A stretch of DNA of 41,758 bases from Frankia torreyi (GTDB taxonomy: Bacteria; Actinomycetota; Actinomycetes; Frankiales; Frankiaceae). The position numbers and the translations under genes are program-made. The notes under the pieces are model-generated. The model had not been told where the DNA came from, searched no databases, and saw nothing but the letters and a program-made list of their open reading frames with translations. Every line of letters starts with the position of its first letter. The first letter of the stretch is position 1. Shown one piece after another: positions 14,511 to 20,156 of the stretch. The stretch spans positions 50,730-92,487 of the forward strand of contig NZ_JYFN01000003.1 of the NCBI RefSeq assembly GCF_000948395.1, given 5' to 3'.

Positions 14511-14747
14511 ATGGTGCAGGACCGACTCCAGCAGATCTTTCGGGAGATCTTCAGCGACGACGGCCTCCTCGTCTCCGACACGATGACCGCCGAGGACGTG
14601 CCCGGCTGGGACTCGCTCGCGCACATCAACCTGATCTACGCCGTCGAGCGGGAGTTCTCGATCCAGATCGCCGACGACCGGCTCGCCAGCTTCGCCACCG
14701 TCGGTGACATGCGCGAGCACATCGAGGAGCTCAGCGGTGTCCACTGA
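14511..14747 (+). CDS. Stand-alone acyl carrier protein
   Basis: This 78-aa protein has the ACP four-helix pattern: LQQIFREIF, a loop, then PGWDSLAHINLIYAVEREF with the phosphopantetheine-accepting Ser35 in the DSL motif, and a final helix (GDMREHIEEL). It starts 5 nt after the FkbH-like stop; ATG 14511 is preferred, and GTG 14508 is possible, both downstream of GGAAGAGG. It would carry an acyl group, probably a glyceryl or related unit made by the FkbH-like enzyme, for transfer by the acyltransferase encoded next. The coding region overlaps that gene by 11 nt. Confidence 0.95.
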   Translation: MVQDRLQQIFREIFSDDGLLVSDTMTAEDVPGWDSLAHINLIYAVEREFSIQIADDRLASFATVGDMREHIEELSGVH

Positions 14748-15402
14748 GGCCGGCCCCGCGATCGGGTCACCCGCCCCGCCGATCGCCCCAGCGGACGACG
14801 TCACCGCCGCGTCCGCCCCGTCCGCCGCGACCGCCGCGACCGCCCGGACCGCCGCCGAGGCGGATCATCGGGAGGCGTCCGAGCTGGGCCTGCGAGAGAT
14901 CCTGCGGGAGGACTTCCGGCGGCATTACGGCTCGCTCGCCCATCCGGGCCTGCACGTGCTCGCCGTCTACCGCCTCGGGCAGTGGCGGCGCACCCGGCGC
15001 CAGCCGCTGCGCGCCGCGCTCACGGTGGTCTACAAGGTGCTCAACAACCTCGTCATCCGTAACCTTTACGGGGTCGAGCTCTCCGAGCAGGCCCGCCTCG
15101 GCCGGCGGGTCCTCATCGGCCATCACCAGACGATCCTGATCCCGCCGTTCTGCGAGATCGGCGACGACTGCACCCTGCGGCACAACCTGACCATCGGCTA
15201 CGCCGGCGGCTCGGCGTCGCCGCGGGACGTGCCGAAGGTCGGGGCCCGGGTCGAGCTCGCCCCCGGCGTCCACCTTCTCGGCGCGATCACCATCGGCGAC
15301 GACGCCCGCATCGGCCCCGGCTCGATCGTCATGGCGGACGTCCCTGCCGGCTCCACTGTCTTCGCCGCCCCGGCCCGGATCATGAAGCCCCCCACCCGCT
15401 GA
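14737..15402 (+). CDS. Left-handed beta-helix acyltransferase, serine acetyltransferase-like
   Basis: I start at GTG 14737, which has GAGGAG 7 nt upstream and lies inside the end of the ACP gene; the frame itself is open from 14704. The 221-aa product has an Ala/Pro-rich disordered start (1-45), then a CysE-type helical region (LREILREDFRRHYGSLAHPG, LAVYRLGQWRR). A hexapeptide-repeat domain follows: GRRVLIGHHQTILIPPFCEIG, CTLRHNLTIGYAG, VELAPGVHLLGAITIGDDA and PGSIVMADVPAGS. The His in the GHHQTI segment is a plausible catalytic residue. By sequence it resembles serine O-acetyltransferase and colanic-acid type acetyltransferases. Given the fkbH-ACP context, an ACP-dependent acylation of a sugar is more likely than cysteine synthesis; this is inference. 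Confidence 0.88.
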   Translation: MSTEAGPAIGSPAPPIAPADDVTAASAPSAATAATARTAAEADHREASELGLREILREDFRRHYGSLAHPGLHVLAVYRLGQWRRTRRQPLRAALTVVYKVLNNLVIRNLYGVELSEQARLGRRVLIGHHQTILIPPFCEIGDDCTLRHNLTIGYAGGSASPRDVPKVGARVELAPGVHLLGAITIGDDARIGPGSIVMADVPAGSTVFAAPARIMKPPTR

Positions 15403-15442
15403 CCACCGCACTTCGGCCGGCCGCCGCTCGGACAAGCAGCCC

Positions 15443-15576
15443 GGTTCCGCGGAACATCAAGATCACTGAGCTGTGGTGGGGGCCGGGCGCATGGCGCGGT
15501 TCCGCGGAACACCAAGATCACCGGTATGTGGTTGGGGTTGGACGTGATTCGCGGTTCCGCGGAACACTGAGATCGC
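15443..15576. repeat. Three 55-bp-period repeats with palindromic GTTCCGCGGAAC cores
   Basis: GGTTCCGCGGAAC occurs at 15443-15455, 15498-15510 and 15553-15565, exactly 55 bp apart, each followed by a related A(Y)CAAGATCAC-like segment. The intervening 31-bp stretches are partly similar to each other, so this is a diverged tandem repeat and not a CRISPR array. A degraded fourth core (GATTCCGCCCGAA) is at about 15602. The core is a perfect 12-bp palindrome. It sits just before the DUF4062 gene and could be a protein-binding array or a mobile-repeat remnant. Confidence 0.85.
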
Positions 15577-15621: not shown

Positions 15622-18600
15622 GTGACATACTCCCAGGGCATGGGGGACAGGCACGTGTACGGGCCGGGTCGTGCCGTGACCGGTGAACCTTCGGCGCCTG
15701 AACCTTCGGCGCCTGAACCTTCGGCGCCTGAACCTTCGGCGGCTGAACCTTCGACGACGCCGCGCCGGTTCCACGGGGTGATGGTCTCGAGTACCTACCG
15801 AGATCTGGAGCAGCACCGTGCCGCCGCGATCCGGGCGATTGACGGGCAGGGGCTGCACCCGGTTGCGATGGAGCAGGACTCGGCGCTGCCCGAGGTCACC
15901 GTGGTGGATTCCTCGTTGCAGAAGGTCCGGGACGCGGCGGCCTATGTGGGCATCGTTGGACGCAGCTACGGGCAGGTCCCCAGGATCGCAGGTAATCCGC
16001 GGGGTCTGTCGCTGACCGAGCTGGAGTTCCGGGAGGCGCGCCGCCTCGGCCGGCCAACGCTGATCTTCATCATGAGCGAAAGGCATCCGGTGCCGGAGAC
16101 GGCGGTGGAGCTGGACCCGGAGAAACGCCGAAAACTGGCGGAGTTCCGCGACGAGGTGAAGCGCGCGAGTGACGACTCTCTCGTGCACCGGGTGTACCGG
16201 GAGTTCGACAGTCTCGAGGATTTCACGGTCGCGGTCACGCAGTCGGTCGCCGCGCTGCGCCGTGTCCTCGACGCGCGCGACACCGGGGCTGCCCCCGGGC
16301 CCGCCGCCGGGGCGAATCGGGCCGGCCGGCGGGAGCGCGATGGTATCCCCGCCTCGCCGCAGCTTTACGCCGAGCCTCCCTATATCGGTCGGCAGCGGTT
16401 CGTCGGGCGGGTGGCCCAACTGGAGACCCTGACCGACTGGGCGGCACCCGCGGATCCGTACCCGATCCTGCTGTTCGACGCGATCGGCGGCACCGGAAAG
16501 AGCGCGCTGACGTGGGAATGGGTCTTCGGCCACGCTACTGATGTCCGCGGAGACTGGGCGGGGCGATTCTGGTACTCCTTCTACGAGAAGGGGGCGGTGA
16601 TGGCCGACTTCTGCCGCCGGGCCCTCGCCTACACCACCGGCCGGCCGCTGGACGACTTCAGGAACCTCAAACAGCCCGACCTCACCGACCTGCTGCTCCG
16701 CCAGCTCCAGAGCAGGCCGTGGCTGCTGGTCCTCGACGGCCTCGAACGAGTCCTCGTCCACTACCACCGCCAGGATGCCGCCCAGCTCGCCGACGAAGAC
16801 GCCGGCACCAGCGACACGATCGCCGACCGCGACCCCTGCGCGGCGATCCGTCCCCTCGACGACGAGCTGCTGCGCGGGCTCGCCGCCCCCGGTCCGTCGA
16901 AGATCCTCATGACCTCACGGCTGGTGCCGTCGGTTCTGCTCGGCCCCGCCGGCCAACCGATCCCCGGTGTCCGACACGAGCCGCTGCCCGGACTCCGGCC
17001 AGCCGACGCGGAAGCCCTGCTGCGGTCCTTCGGAGTCGACGGCGACTCGGGCACCATCCGCACCTACCTGCAGCGGCACTGCGACTGCCATCCACTCGTG
17101 ACCGGCATCGTCGCCGGTCTCGTCACCCACTATCTGCCCGCGCGCGGCCAGTTCGACCGCTGGGCCGCCGACCCCGACCACGGGGGCCGCCTCGACGTCG
17201 GGGACCTCGATCTCGTCGGCAAACGCAACCACATCCTGCACGCGGCCATCGACGCACTTCCCGACCCGGGTCGACAACTGTTGTCCATGCTCGCCCTGCT
17301 GTCCGAAGCCACCGACTACGACACCATCAACGCGCTCAACCCCCACCTGCCGGTTAAACCCGACGCCGTCCCCACGCCGTCGAAGCCCGAAGACGATTGG
17401 GACTGGGAGTACAGGTCGGCGGAGGACCGCGCCGCCGCGCGGGTGGCACACGCGGCGGCGATGGAGGAGTACCAGGCATACCTGCAAGCCCTGAGCACGT
17501 GGGAGCGAGCCCCGGAACGTCTCTCGGCCGCGCGACGACTCGCCGACACCGTGGTGGACCTGGAAAAACGCGGGCTGCTGCAGTTCGATCGGCGCACCCG
17601 CCGGTACGACCTGCACCCGGTGGTGCGCTCCGTCGCCGCCGGCAGGCTCCCCACCCACGACCGTGACCACCTTGGCCAACGCGTCGTGGACTACTTCTCC
17701 GCCCGTCCCCACATCCCTTACGGGGAAGCCGAATCTCTTGACGATCTACAGAATGGCCTGACCGTCGTCCGTACCCTCCTGCGAATGGGCCGGATCTCCG
17801 AAGCCTACGACGCATACCTGGGCGACCTGACACACGCCCTCGCCTTCAATCTGGAGGCGTACACTGAGATACTATCTTTAGTACGCCCCTTCTTTGTCCA
17901 TGGCTGGAACACTCCGTCCCCCGATCTGGACGCGACGGCCCAGAGTTTTCTGGTCTCCAACGCGGGCTACGCGCTCAGTATCCTCGGAGAGTACCGCCAG
18001 GCGTTCGCCGCTGGCAGAGTCGGTTTGGATATCAACCTTGACCGGCAGAACTGGAATAGCTTGCGTAATGCGATAAGCAACTGTGGAATGGGTATTTATG
18101 GCCAGAACCGCCTCGCGGCTGGCGAGCGCCTTTTTTCTCTCGCTCTCGAGCTGGCTGAATGTCTCGACGGTGAGGATTTGTTCCTCGGGCGACTAAGCCT
18201 TTACAATATATATGTAGATTCCGGACGTATGGATGATGCCGAGCGCATGTGGGAGGCTCTCGACCCGATGGGTCGCGACTGGGCCCGGTCGAGGTACAGA
18301 CCCGGGAGCGCCGAGCTACTGCGTGCCCACTTCCTGTTCGAGCAGGGCACTCTCACGGAGGACGACCTGGGGCAGGCCGAGCAGATTGCGACGGCCGGCC
18401 GCAGCCGTGAGAATGTCCGCGAGCTGTACCGGCTGCGTGGGTGGTGGCTGGCGGACCGCGGCCAGTGGGCGGCCGCAGCAGACAGTCTCAGCGAAGCCGT
18501 GCGCATGGCCCGCGAAGCCGGCATCCCCGAAGCCCACGCTGAAACCCTGCTCGCCCTGGCCCGTCTCCACCTCGGCCAGCTCACGAACCCCCGCGCCGAC

Positions 18601-18906
18601 GCCGAACGCCTGGCCGCGCTCCGCCGGCCCGCGCACCTCCACCTCGCGCGTCTGTGGCACGCCATCGGCGACACCGGCCAGGCGACCAGGCACGCCCTCG
18701 CCGCCTACCGGTATGCCTGGGCAGACGGCGAACCCCACGTCCACCGCCACGAACTGAACCGCGCGACGGAGCTGCTGCACACCCTGGGCGCCGAGATCCC
18801 CCGCCTGTCCCCCTACGACCCCGCGGCCGACCCGCCGCCCGACTGGGAACTACGCGCCGCGGCAGCCATCCGCGATCTACGCCGTCAGGACGACAGTCAG
18901 GGCTGA
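15622..18906 (+). CDS. DUF4062-STAND NTPase-TPR protein, candidate conflict/defence sensor
   Basis: This 1094-aa protein starts at GTG 15622 (ATG 15640 is an alternative). A PSAPE repeat tail (about 21-45) precedes a DUF4062 domain: FHGVMVSSTYRDLEQHRAAA, then AAYVGIVGRSYGQVP and LSLTELEFREARRLGRPTLIF. This domain has a TIR/nucleoside-deoxyribosyltransferase-like fold. The NTPase has Walker A GGTGKS (289-294) and Walker B WLLVLDGLE (367-375), a sensor-like ILMTSRLVPSV and a winged-helix region. The C-terminal third is helical with TPR-like units (NAGYALSILGEYRQAFAAG, GWWLADRGQWAAAADSLSEA). STAND proteins bind ATP and oligomerise on ligand sensing, and several DUF4062/NACHT fusions belong to anti-phage or conflict systems. 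The antiviral role here is inference. Between about 17,860 and 18,250 AT content rises sharply, which suggests foreign origin or relaxed selection. Confidence 0.85.
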   Translation: MTYSQGMGDRHVYGPGRAVTGEPSAPEPSAPEPSAPEPSAAEPSTTPRRFHGVMVSSTYRDLEQHRAAAIRAIDGQGLHPVAMEQDSALPEVTVVDSSLQKVRDAAAYVGIVGRSYGQVPRIAGNPRGLSLTELEFREARRLGRPTLIFIMSERHPVPETAVELDPEKRRKLAEFRDEVKRASDDSLVHRVYREFDSLEDFTVAVTQSVAALRRVLDARDTGAAPGPAAGANRAGRRERDGIPASPQLYAEPPYIGRQRFVGRVAQLETLTDWAAPADPYPILLFDAIGGTGKSALTWEWVFGHATDVRGDWAGRFWYSFYEKGAVMADFCRRALAYTTGRPLDDFRNLKQPDLTDLLLRQLQSRPWLLVLDGLERVLVHYHRQDAAQLADEDAGTSDTIADRDPCAAIRPLDDELLRGLAAPGPSKILMTSRLVPSVLLGPAGQPIPGVRHEPLPGLRPADAEALLRSFGVDGDSGTIRTYLQRHCDCHPLVTGIVAGLVTHYLPARGQFDRWAADPDHGGRLDVGDLDLVGKRNHILHAAIDALPDPGRQLLSMLALLSEATDYDTINALNPHLPVKPDAVPTPSKPEDDWDWEYRSAEDRAAARVAHAAAMEEYQAYLQALSTWERAPERLSAARRLADTVVDLEKRGLLQFDRRTRRYDLHPVVRSVAAGRLPTHDRDHLGQRVVDYFSARPHIPYGEAESLDDLQNGLTVVRTLLRMGRISEAYDAYLGDLTHALAFNLEAYTEILSLVRPFFVHGWNTPSPDLDATAQSFLVSNAGYALSILGEYRQAFAAGRVGLDINLDRQNWNSLRNAISNCGMGIYGQNRLAAGERLFSLALELAECLDGEDLFLGRLSLYNIYVDSGRMDDAERMWEALDPMGRDWARSRYRPGSAELLRAHFLFEQGTLTEDDLGQAEQIATAGRSRENVRELYRLRGWWLADRGQWAAAADSLSEAVRMAREAGIPEAHAETLLALARLHLGQLTNPRADAERLAALRRPAHLHLARLWHAIGDTGQATRHALAAYRYAWADGEPHVHRHELNRATELLHTLGAEIPRLSPYDPAADPPPDWELRAAAAIRDLRRQDDSQG
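15685..15753. repeat. In-frame 15-bp tandem repeat (EPSAP units)
   Basis: The unit GAACCTTCGGCGCCT is repeated four times with a partial fifth copy, encoding Glu-Pro-Ser-Ala-Pro pentapeptides in the disordered start of the DUF4062 protein. Copies are nearly identical, so the array is young and probably length-variable between strains. Confidence 0.9.
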
Positions 18907-19082
18907 CGAGGTCCGACCGCTCCCCGGGTGGCCATCGGTCGGTCCGTTCACAGTGACGGTGAATGACCGGGCTTTCGCGTCTGGTGTCGCGGTGCGTCGA
19001 CTAGGTGGCCTGTGCGGAGGCCGCGGGATGTCGGCGGCCGGGGGGCGGGACCGAGTCGGTACGGTTTGAGGCCGGACCGTCT

Positions 19083-19096: not shown

Positions 19097-19127
19097 ACCC
19101 CGCGGCCGACATGGAGAGGACTCGCGG

Positions 19128-20156
19128 ATGAAGGTGCTCGTGACGGGCACGGAGGGGTACCTGGGGTGCCTGCTCGCGCCCGAGCTGATGCGCGATGGCC
19201 ACGAGGTCATCGGCGTGGACACCGGTTACTACAAGTACGGCTGGCTGTACCGCGGGACGGACCGGACCCCGCTGACCCTCGACAAGGACCTGCGCCACCT
19301 CACCGTCGCAGACCTCGCGGGCGTCGACGCCGTGGTGCACATGGCCGAGCTGTCCAACGACCCGCTCGGCGCGCTCGCGCCGGACGTCACGTACAAGGTC
19401 AACCACCTCGGCTCGGTGCGGCTGGCGAACCTCGCCAAGCAGGCCGGCGTCGAACGGTTCGTCTACATGTCCTCGTGCAGCGTCTACGGCGTGGCGACCG
19501 GCGAGGACGTCACGGAGACCTCGCCGGTCAACCCGCAGACCCCGTACGCCGAGTGCAAGGTCTACGTGGAGCGCGACGTCGCCCCGCTGGCCGACGACTC
19601 CTTCTCGCCGACCTTCCTGCGCAACGCCACCGCCTACGGCGCCTCGCCGCGGCAGCGGTTCGACATCGTGCTGAACAACCTCGCCGGCGTCGCCTGGACG
19701 ACCGGCGAGATCGCGATGACCTCGGACGGCACCCCCTGGCGTCCGCTGGTCCACGGCCTCGACATCGCGAAGGCGATCGGCCTCGCGCTGACCGCGCCGC
19801 GCGACGTCGTCCACAACCAGATCTTCAACGTGGGTGACAGCGAGCAGAACTACCAGGTCAAGGAGATCGCCGACGCGGTCGCCAGCGTCTTCACCGGGTG
19901 CAAGCTGAGCTTCGGCGACAACGGCGGTGACAACCGCAGCTACCGGGTGTCCTTCGACAAGATCGCGAGCACCCTGCCCGGATTCTCCTGCGACTGGAAC
20001 GCGCTGCGCGGCGCCCAGCAGCTCCACGAGGTCTTCAGCCGTATCCAGCTCGACCCGGAGACCTTCACCGGCCGCGGGCACACCCGACTCAAGCAGCTCC
20101 AGTACCTGATCGGCACCGGCCAGCTCGACGCCGACCTGTTCTGGGCGCATCCGTGA
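19128..20156 (+). CDS. NAD-dependent sugar epimerase/reductase (extended SDR)
   Basis: The ATG at 19128 has GGAGAGGA 8 nt upstream; longer in-frame starts lack this. The 342-aa extended SDR has the Rossmann glycines GTEGYLG (7-13), [11 protein letters not shown] in the cofactor region, MSSCSVYG (Ser116/118) and the catalytic Tyr140-x3-Lys144 in TPYAECK. The serine triad position lacks the T-D-E of nucleotide-sugar 4,6-dehydratases, so an epimerase or reductase is more likely. The early [10 protein letters not shown] segment is typical of a subgroup found beside RfbC-like epimerases and sugar C-methyltransferases, which is the case here. The stop overlaps the next start by GTGA. Substrate inferred: a CDP- or dTDP-4-keto-6-deoxyhexose. 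Confidence 0.9.

What the first reader, a model, noticed from the sequence alone, without database searches (positions are those of the whole stretch)
15622..18906. DUF4062-STAND-TPR protein as a candidate single-gene defence system
The order TIR-like DUF4062, STAND NTPase with intact Walker motifs, and TPR sensor matches the effector-switch-sensor logic of Avs and other NLR-like anti-phage proteins. It is alone between repeats and unrelated sugar genes, and part of it has unusually high AT content, both suggestive of acquisition. The antiviral role is inference.
Basis: partly seen in the sequence, partly recalled or inferred. Interest (0 to 1): 0.7.

Follow-up and report, generated by a model that had tools for sequence, protein, structure and literature searches.

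The report
NLR-like immune receptor with swappable effector
This Frankia gene encodes a three-part sensor protein built like the immune receptors of plants and animals, whose front end resembles a recently described NAD-destroying antiphage enzyme, and whose relatives in many bacterial phyla carry other enzymes on the same body; it is a strong but untested candidate for a one-gene antiviral defence.

Summary
In detail: one intact 1,094-codon ORF (15622-18906, +), DUF4062, then a nucleotide-binding ATPase, then TPRs. The ATPase is NB-ARC/Apaf-1-like. The residue aligned with catalytic E97 of the Swarozyc NADase KpSwz is E135, Glu in 44 of 44 rows; key Walker residues are invariant in 59 of 59.

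No neighbour family recurs in more than 3 of 63 related loci.

New here: the same NB-ARC-TPR body, labelled as 11 phyla, carries other N-terminal domains (of 15: SIR2 8, metallophosphatase 5, caspase 1, unassigned 1), and 83-87% identical bodies can carry remote DUF4062 domains. The AT-rich stretch is the variable TPR sensor, AT-shifted family-wide; the repeats are a dispersed palindrome also found at empty slots.

Best reading: an NLR-like, NAD-depleting abortive-infection receptor. Antiphage activity, NADase activity and trigger are inferred. By the tests run it is neither a canonical Swarozyc nor an Avs.

The parts
15622..18906 (+). DUF4062-NB-ARC-TPR gene (1,094 aa from GTG 15622; likelier starts ATG 15640 or GTG 15655)
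   Evidence: ORF; Pfam; start-context comparison with two other Frankia copies, by eye
15769..16281 (+). DUF4062 / TIR-like effector domain, residues about 50-220
   Evidence: Pfam E 1.5e-17; KpSwz structure 10wc E 1.8e-4 with the single sequence, 2.1e-17 by profile; AF2 of the domain alone pLDDT 90.2; closest solved folds DNPH1/MilB N-glycosidases Z 12-13.7, then TIR domains RUN1/SARM1 Z about 11-12
16024..16026 (+). E135, predicted catalytic glutamate (aligned with KpSwz E97)
   Evidence: E in 44 of 44 DUF4062 rows, while neighbouring E133 is replaced in 8 of 44; aligned with the Ala of the E97A construct (position counted by hand)
16348..17721 (+). NB-ARC/AP-ATPase STAND module with winged helix, residues about 243-700
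   Evidence: AF2 model and PDB matches; H665-P666 in 59 of 59, probably the MHD-type motif (name recalled)
16480..16503 (+). Walker A, AIGGTGKS, residues 287-294
   Evidence: G289, G290, G292, K293, S294 invariant 59/59
16723..16737 (+). Walker B, LLVLD, residues 368-372
   Evidence: D372 and E375 invariant 59/59
17719..18807 (+). TPR superhelix (predicted sensor), residues about 700-1062
   Evidence: Helical hairpins in the AF2 model; matches MalT domain III, Rap, PH0952
17839..18351 (+). Variable, AT-shifted core of the sensor, residues 740-910
   Evidence: Lowest family conservation of the NB-ARC-TPR part and aa-corrected GC3 dip (750-900: 57 of 59 genes; 740-910: 58 of 59)
15442..15574 (+). 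Three palindromic repeats at 55-bp spacing; dispersed family, not part of the system
14704..15402 (+). Left flank: hexapeptide acetyltransferase gene, found in all 13 Frankia genomes searched
19125..20156 (+). Right flank: NAD-dependent epimerase gene, found in all 13 Frankia genomes searched
18907..18910 (.). Right edge of the variable stretch: homology to the empty slot of G002 resumes at 18910
   Evidence: blastn 85% over 216 bp; for the other empty slots homology begins further right

Best explanation
A single-gene, NLR-like immune receptor. At rest the NB-ARC ATPase holds the protein as an inactive, probably ADP-bound monomer. The TPR superhelix recognises an invader component (a phage protein is most likely; which one is unknown). 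Binding lets the ATPase exchange nucleotide and oligomerise, which brings several DUF4062 (TIR-like) domains together. These hydrolyse NAD+ with E135 as catalytic residue, and the cell stops growing or dies before phage is released (abortive infection). The gene is gained and lost as one cassette, and the family diversifies by swapping the effector and by fast change of the sensor around a conserved NB-ARC core. SHOWN: domain order, predicted folds, invariant catalytic and Walker residues, patchy occupancy of one slot, effector swapping among relatives, no recurrent partner gene. INFERRED: nucleotide switching, oligomerisation, NADase activity, phage trigger, cell death.
For: DUF4062 of KpSwz is an experimentally shown NADase and antiphage effector needing E97 (PMC13174449); the window's domain matches that chain (E 2.1e-17 by profile) with the Glu conserved 44/44. 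NB-ARC plus TPR fold with intact nucleotide motifs. The same body with SIR2, metallophosphatase or caspase in front in 14 of 15 alternative N termini examined; at least 12 changes of N-terminal kind on the tree (no shuffle control for this count). Of four SIR2 versions scanned, three match the Thoeris ThsA model and four the LmuA model, all weakly (E 1e-4 to 9e-7). 3 of 13 Frankia genomes occupied, 3 changes on a flank-gene tree. No recurrent partner gene among the two nearest predicted ORFs on each side. Purifying selection: pairwise dN/dS 0.42 with AgB32, 0.52 with the F. tisae piece.
Against: No tested activity of a DUF4062-NB-ARC-TPR protein was found in the papers searched. No PADLOC model matches it. 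It does not sit beside known defence genes here, and the PADLOC scan of 215 neighbours of its relatives gave models, not a count of proteins (control 100): no argument for defence. Not every DUF4062 is an NADase: human NWD1, NWD2 and NPHP3 showed none. The nearest solved folds of the domain are nucleotide N-glycosidases, slightly ahead of TIR domains. The Frankia tisae copy carries a frameshift and an in-frame stop, so it is dispensable there or misassembled.
Confidence: 0.62

Rival explanations
1. NLR-like immune receptor, but the DUF4062 domain acts on another substrate: as an N-glycosidase of (deoxy)nucleotides, or making an NAD-derived signal for a partner encoded elsewhere.
For: Closest solved folds are DNPH1 and MilB nucleotide N-glycosidases, Z 12-13.7, ahead of TIR domains of RUN1 and SARM1 at 11-12. 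The DUF4062 paper notes distant similarity to nucleoside 2-deoxyribosyltransferases, three inactive human members, and possible more complex activities.
Against: Sequence places it with KpSwz, a shown NADase giving ADP-ribose and nicotinamide. No recurrent partner gene near relatives. SIR2, a class with NAD-cleaving defence members (PMC12931631 passages), is the commonest replacement seen.
Confidence: 0.17
2. Regulated cell-death or self/non-self receptor of a filamentous bacterium, triggered by plasmids, kin conflict or developmental signals rather than phage.
For: AP-ATPase-TPR proteins with exchangeable effectors were described within conflict systems of multicellular prokaryotes (passages of PMC7159879 and PMC8195603). 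A relative sits on a mobilizable Nostoc plasmid. Frankia grows as hyphae (recalled).
Against: Relatives occur in groups not known as filamentous (the habit is recalled); Avs5, with the same tripartite layout, acts against jumbo phages (passages of PMC12931631).
Confidence: 0.15
3. MalT-like metabolic regulator of the sugar cluster in which it lies.
For: MalT has the same ATPase plus TPR layout, and the neighbours are sugar genes.
Against: No DNA-binding domain found by Pfam; 10 of 13 Frankia genomes have the same two flanking genes without it; N-terminal enzymes are swapped among relatives.
Confidence: 0.03
4. Functionless passenger, on the way out.
For: Patchy presence, and a damaged copy in Frankia tisae.
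Against: Intact frame in the window and in AgB32; the catalytic and Walker residues are kept; dN/dS 0.32-0.55 over the modules against AgB32 and 0.40-0.60 against the F. tisae piece.
Confidence: 0.03

Closest known systems
Swarozyc (KpSwz), the DUF4062 antiphage NADase (PMC13174449; PDB 10wc)
   Same: Homologous DUF4062 domain; E135 aligns with catalytic E97; single protein; patchy spread.
   Different: KpSwz has an HTH/winged auxiliary domain that binds the phage portal, and no ATPase is described in it; the window protein has NB-ARC and TPRs instead. The five bacterial proteins tested there had similar C-terminal auxiliary domains.
Animal TEP1 / NWD1 / NWD2 / NPHP3 (DUF4062 next to a NACHT ATPase)
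   Same: DUF4062 joined to a STAND ATPase; TEP1 is an active NADase.
   Different: NACHT and, in several, WD40 in the animal proteins; NB-ARC-like and TPR here. The same Frankia genome has closer look-alikes: DUF4062-NB-ARC-WD40 and DUF4062-NACHT-HEAT.
Avs (AVAST) types, e.g. Avs5 with SIR2-STAND
   Same: Tripartite effector-STAND-repeat layout; NAD-depleting effector in Avs5 (passages of PMC12931631).
   Different: No PADLOC model matched; Avs5 has nSTAND3, while this is NB-ARC/Apaf-1-like; no trigger known.
PH0952, STAND ATPase with TPR sensor (PDB 6mfv), and MalT
   Same: NB-ARC-type ATPase plus TPR, 588 aligned residues for PH0952.
   Different: The match begins behind the DUF4062 part (model residue 242).
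AP-ATPase-TPR conflict systems of multicellular prokaryotes (PMC7159879, PMC8195603; passages read)
   Same: AP-ATPase with C-terminal TPRs, some with TIR in front; exchangeable effectors such as TIR, calcineurin and caspase in the wider group.
   Different: Neither paper is among the 9 that hold the word DUF4062; those systems have partner genes, none recurrent was found here.

Membership tests
Swarozyc / DUF4062 TIR-like NADase | DUF4062 domain homologous to KpSwz | tested here: met
   Pfam E 1.5e-17; KpSwz chain E 2.1e-17 by profile
Swarozyc / DUF4062 TIR-like NADase | Catalytic glutamate (KpSwz E97) | tested here: met
   E135 in 44 of 44 rows; correspondence counted by hand
Swarozyc / DUF4062 TIR-like NADase | C-terminal HTH/winged auxiliary domain that binds the phage portal | tested here: not met
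   The match to the KpSwz chain ends at residue 161 of 326; behind DUF4062 the window protein is NB-ARC-TPR. Hence not filed as a canonical Swarozyc
Swarozyc / DUF4062 TIR-like NADase | NAD+ hydrolysis and abortive infection | not testable with these tools
   Needs biochemistry and phage assays
NB-ARC (AP-ATPase) STAND receptors, NLR-like | NB-ARC fold with intact Walker A and B | tested here: met
   (predicted fold)
NB-ARC (AP-ATPase) STAND receptors, NLR-like | C-terminal repeat sensor and exchangeable N-terminal effector | tested here: met
   TPR; 15 relatives with other N termini, 14 assigned by Pfam. That the TPRs sense anything is inferred
NB-ARC (AP-ATPase) STAND receptors, NLR-like | Ligand-driven oligomerisation | not testable with these tools
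   No complex prediction or experiment
Avs (AVAST) antiphage systems | Match to Avs models of PADLOC | tested here: not met
   No family of the library up to E 0.1; none up to E 0.001 for the DUF4062 relative L103
Avs (AVAST) antiphage systems | Recognition of a phage protein (terminase, portal or other) | not testable with these tools
   Needs escapers or co-expression
TEP1/NWD1-type DUF4062-NACHT-WD40 | NACHT followed by WD40 | tested here: not met
   No NACHT or WD40 by Pfam; NB-ARC and TPR in the model; two paralogues in the same genome have WD40
Single-gene defence cassette | No conserved neighbour gene | tested here: met
   215 neighbour ORFs of 63 loci: no family in more than 3 loci at blastp E 1e-6 and 40% coverage
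Single-gene defence cassette | Presence/absence at one site among close relatives | tested here: met
   3 occupied (one placed by its left side only) and 10 empty of 13 Frankia
Single-gene defence cassette | Protection against phage | not testable with these tools
   No experiment

The most novel reading that the evidence does not exclude
The NB-ARC-TPR body is a widespread, mobile receptor chassis (11 phyla by record labels) that works like a plug-in immune platform: it trades whole effectors (DUF4062, SIR2, metallophosphatase, caspase), trades one DUF4062 for a remote one, and has a fast-changing, AT-shifted sensor core. The DUF4062 version would be a bacterial NLR counterpart of the animal TEP1/NWD1 family, linking Swarozyc, bacterial NLRs and the vault NADase.
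Probability: 0.45. Interest if true: 0.72.

Novelty: new variant of a known kind. Interest (0 to 1): 0.52.

Why it matters
A May 2026 preprint tied bacterial DUF4062 to antiphage defence, in tested proteins that share an HTH/winged auxiliary domain; in animals the same domain sits next to STAND ATPases. A compact bacterial DUF4062-NB-ARC-TPR protein, with relatives that bear other effectors on the same body, makes two questions directly testable: whether DUF4062 NADases are switched on by NLR-like oligomerisation, and whether effector and trigger specificity can be moved independently.

Tried and rejected
Repeats as borders of a mobile element: rejected. The palindromic repeat (pattern GGTTCCGCGGAACAYYRAGATC, up to 3 mismatches) has 54 matches in this genome, and a near pattern (up to 2 mismatches) matches in 10 of 13 Frankia genomes. 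Of 20 further sites read in this genome, one repeat falls inside a weak predicted ORF and 17 sites have a predicted gene that ends towards the repeat within 400 bp (my reading, no control). The core palindrome is exact at the empty slots of G006 and G003 and altered at those of G002 and G012. AT-rich stretch as acquisition mark: rejected. CRISPR reading of the 55-bp spacing: considered and dropped because of the many single dispersed copies. Phages and viral contigs: no relative found (IMG/VR, six short patterns, phage records, E 1e-5). Plasmids: 5 records, none covering 80% of the query; only the Nostoc one covers NB-ARC-TPR well. Neighbour enrichment for defence genes: inconclusive. PADLOC on 215 neighbours listed 98 and 26 models (25 shown each), one protein can match many; the control (54 genes around repeats in this genome, 5 models) differs in taxon; of 10 large neighbours checked one by one 2 matched. 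KpSwz is not among the rows shown for the DUF4062 model; that library ends in April 2026, so this says nothing. Promoter prediction was not attempted. Limits of the samples: the genome scan used two short patterns derived from two Frankia proteins, so 43 to 15 is no frequency; at most 13 candidates per genome were scored. Rows dropped: of 70 loci, 12 were left out of alignment A3 as broken, partial, with a large insertion or remote (L089, L110, L116, L142, L143, L145, L147, L150, L152, L155, L157, L158); the N termini of L116 and L142 were not examined; the DUF4062 fold used 41 of 44 rows. Of 70 loci, 66 entered the neighbour list (L089, L090, L157, L158 out; L106 has no neighbour ORF), and 215 of 219 neighbour ORFs from 63 loci were compared (L143 and L147 left out by me). 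Neighbours are the two nearest ORFs of 100 codons or more on each side from a crude ORF picker.
Full report
WHAT IS THERE. The ORF at 15622-18906 (+) is intact and 1,094 codons long. Pfam sees DUF4062 at residues 53-139 (E 1.5e-17) and nothing else up to E 0.01; NCBIfam (up to E 0.01) and PADLOC (up to E 0.1) see nothing. AlphaFold2 on an alignment of 59 rows, the window and 58 relatives, gave mean pLDDT 85.7, pTM 0.69. Residues 256-680 match the NB-ARC of plant NRC1 (Z 24.2 over 319 residues, rmsd 4.0), Apaf-1 matches with Z 23.8, and residues 242-1054 match the STAND-TPR protein PH0952 (Z 22.9, 588 residues, rmsd 7.4). So the switch is of the NB-ARC/AP-ATPase kind. G289, G290, G292, K293, S294, D372, E375, R433, H490, H665 and P666 are the same in 59 of 59 rows. 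The most upstream start is probably not the real one: the Frankia copies align from about 15640-15655 (by eye).

THE EFFECTOR. A full-text search for DUF4062 gave 9 papers. One, PMC13174449 (bioRxiv, May 2026; I read parts 1 and 2 of 6 and passages), reports that DUF4062 is a TIR-like NADase, that K. pneumoniae KpSwz protects against phage through E97 and is switched on by a phage portal, and that human TEP1 is an NADase while NWD1, NWD2 and NPHP3 showed no activity. The KpSwz chain in the PDB matches the window (E 1.8e-4; 2.1e-17 with the family profile). The paper's solved construct carries E97A. Counting by hand along the aligned chain, the Ala opposite window E135 is residue 84 of the deposited sequence; the offset of 13 that makes it residue 97 also puts D71, a residue named in the paper, on an Asp. 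E135 is Glu in 44 of 44 DUF4062 rows, while E133 beside it is R or H in 8 of 44. Folded alone (41 rows, pLDDT 90.2), the domain is nearest to DNPH1/MilB nucleotide N-glycosidases (Z up to 13.7), then TIR domains of RUN1 (11.8) and SARM1 (11.4), in line with the paper's remark on TIR and nucleoside deoxyribosyltransferase kinship. NADase is the likelier activity, not the only one.

PRESENCE AND ABSENCE AT THE SITE. The window is a Frankia: its nearest relatives are Frankia sp. AgB32 (G004/L090) and Frankia tisae (G010/L089). Of 58 genomes searched, own included, 22 had a match at E 0.001 or better, but only these three over most of the protein; the others match mainly in DUF4062. The flanking acetyltransferase and epimerase genes occur in 13 of 13 Frankia genomes. 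The gap between them is 3,725 bp in the window and 3,621 in AgB32, but 164-721 bp in ten others. In F. tisae the slot is split over contigs: the contig with the gene begins with the end of the acetyltransferase gene (89% over 84 bp to the window), so it is placed by its left side only. So 3 of 13 are occupied and 10 empty. A tree of the epimerase gene needs 3 changes; AgB32's sister G008 and F. tisae's sister G002 are empty, both pairs well supported, while the window's place among five genomes is unresolved. Homology to the empty slot of G002 resumes at 18910, 4 bases behind the stop codon (later for the other slots), and on the left homology to G006 runs to about 15520: the variable stretch is essentially one gene. 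Gain and loss cannot be told apart. The F. tisae copy has a frameshift and an in-frame stop, from decay or assembly error.

EFFECTOR SWAPPING. A scan of one genome each of 84,980 species with two short patterns gave 70 loci, among them Planctomycetota, Acidobacteriota, Actinomycetota, Pseudomonadota, Bacteroidota, Verrucomicrobiota, Chlorobiota and Chloroflexota; 11 phyla are named in the 59-row tree. In 43 the match begins in DUF4062 and the row entered the alignment. In 15 proteins it begins at residues 194-248, behind another N-terminal stretch of at least 244 residues, two of them cut by the contig end: SIR2 in 8 (L118, L127, L132, L135, L136, L146, L150, L154), metallophosphatase in 5 (L109, L117, L119, L124, L126), caspase in 1 (L131), nothing recognised in 1 (L123). 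The quick tree of the NB-ARC-TPR part needs 12 changes of N-terminal kind (6 states, so 5 at least; no shuffle control; 12 of 56 inner branches are open) and 23 changes of phylum (10 at least; shuffled mean 39.5). L108 (DUF4062) and L135 (SIR2) share 77% of 796 residues; L109 (metallophosphatase) and L146 (SIR2) share 90% in NB-ARC but 48% in the sensor. In a cluster of six DUF4062 rows labelled as three phyla (L099, L103, L114, L121, L138, L149; 15 pairs) the bodies are 83-87% identical with 12-26% differences at four-fold sites in NB-ARC, but in 13 of 15 pairs the DUF4062 domains are only 34-60% identical with 42-74% four-fold differences; in two pairs (L103-L149, L114-L138) they are 85-87% identical, still with 39-45% four-fold differences. 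So the effector seems to be exchanged even within one kind. Most loci are metagenome bins, so taxon labels may be wrong; misalignment of divergent N termini may add to these numbers, and some pairs rest on 23-30 four-fold sites.

THE SENSOR AND THE AT CONTENT. With amino-acid make-up taken out, GC at third positions is lower by 0.11 in residues 750-900 than in the rest of the gene, in 57 of 59 genes; NB-ARC residues 250-400 show the opposite, +0.085, with 4 of 59 negative. It is regional: conserved residues inside the sensor also show it (-0.068), variable residues in NB-ARC do not (+0.068), and it holds in gene-GC classes from under 0.5 to over 0.66 (58 of 59 negative in all for residues 740-910). 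Four-fold divergence is higher in the sensor than in NB-ARC in 201 of 240 pairs of at least 60% identity (pairs are not independent); window against AgB32 dS is 0.75 in the sensor and 0.41 in NB-ARC, with dN/dS 0.55 and 0.32. Against replacement of whole sensor segments: in the six-row cluster the sensor's four-fold differences (9-24%) are no higher than those of NB-ARC, while its amino-acid identity falls to 66-77% against 90-95%, which looks like fast protein change. The stretch was chosen because of the window, and no other TPR-STAND family was used as control. The cause of the GC dip is unsettled; gene conversion that keeps the NB-ARC core similar and GC-rich is one idea.

SINGLE GENE. Among 215 neighbour ORFs from 63 loci no family recurs in more than 3 loci (blastp E 1e-6, 40% coverage). 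PADLOC matches among them exist (for instance to mad, PtuB, ShosT and PsyrT models) but the output does not give a number of proteins, and the control is weak. I do not use it as evidence.

MECHANISM. Inferred from homologues: resting ADP-bound NB-ARC; a TPR-bound invader part triggers nucleotide exchange and assembly; clustered DUF4062 domains cleave NAD+; the cell aborts the infection. Domain order, predicted folds, residues, swapping and patchiness are shown; every dynamic step, the substrate and the trigger are inferred. Confidence 0.62.

KNOWN OR NEW. It works like an NLR/Avs protein. It is not filed as Swarozyc, since the portal-binding auxiliary domain is absent, nor as Avs, since no model matched. 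AP-ATPase-TPR proteins, and systems with exchangeable effectors, were described in PMC7159879 and PMC8195603 (passages); Avs5 and hypermutated STAND sensors in PMC12931631 and PMC10907252 (passages). Searches for print (I saw listings) showed no tested DUF4062-NB-ARC-TPR protein; supplements of PMC13174449, which list DUF4062 architectures, were not readable, and subscription papers are mostly not held. I rate it a new variant of a known kind.

PARALOGUES. The same genome has four more DUF4062 matches: DUF4062-NB-ARC-WD40 (L186), DUF4062-NACHT-HEAT in a frame of at least 2,329 codons (L187), a DUF4062 frame with WD40 and a P-loop (L188; Pfam list cut at 25 of 44) and DUF4062 with no other family up to E 0.01 (L189). 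12 of 13 Frankia genomes have at least one DUF4062. So DUF4062 as such is common in the genus; the NB-ARC-TPR form at this slot is the variable part.

Noticed in passing
15442-15574; G000 genome-wide: Dispersed palindromic repeat (core GGTTCCGCGGAAC), 54 matches with up to 3 mismatches in this genome, found in 10 of 13 Frankia genomes, mostly between predicted genes: a REP-like element.
   Followed up: partly
G006:C1:4946778-4947118: In G006 the same palindrome forms a regular tandem array with a 29-bp period, 12 copies listed.
   Followed up: no
L186, L187, L188, L189 (own genome): Four further DUF4062 frames with NB-ARC-WD40, NACHT-HEAT, WD40 and unknown partners: architectures like animal NWD1/TEP1 inside one Frankia genome.
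   Followed up: partly
G000:C110:137993-138014; G003:C1:688878-688961: The palindrome also lies a few hundred bases from another DUF4062 domain in this genome and in G003; may be chance or orthologous loci.
   Followed up: no
17839-18351 and the family alignment A3: Family-wide dip of third-position GC in the sensor core, 57 of 59 genes for residues 750-900, regional rather than per-site. Cause unknown.
   Followed up: partly
L099, L103, L114, L121, L138, L149: 83-87% identical NB-ARC-TPR bodies in bins labelled as three phyla, most pairs with remote DUF4062 domains: recent transfer with effector replacement, or mislabelled bins.
   Followed up: partly
L118:491-2428: A relative with SIR2 plus a HATPase_c_4 (RecG C-terminal) domain in front of the same body; the HATPase part also matches Argonaute-associated PADLOC models.
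   Followed up: no
L159 (Nostoc plasmid NZ_CP046715): The NB-ARC-TPR body on a 34.8-kb mobilizable plasmid with only about 100 residues in front.
   Followed up: no
L019:3400-3538 (F. tisae contig): The contig's tail looks like sequencing-adapter sequence (recalled), an assembly artefact.
   Followed up: no
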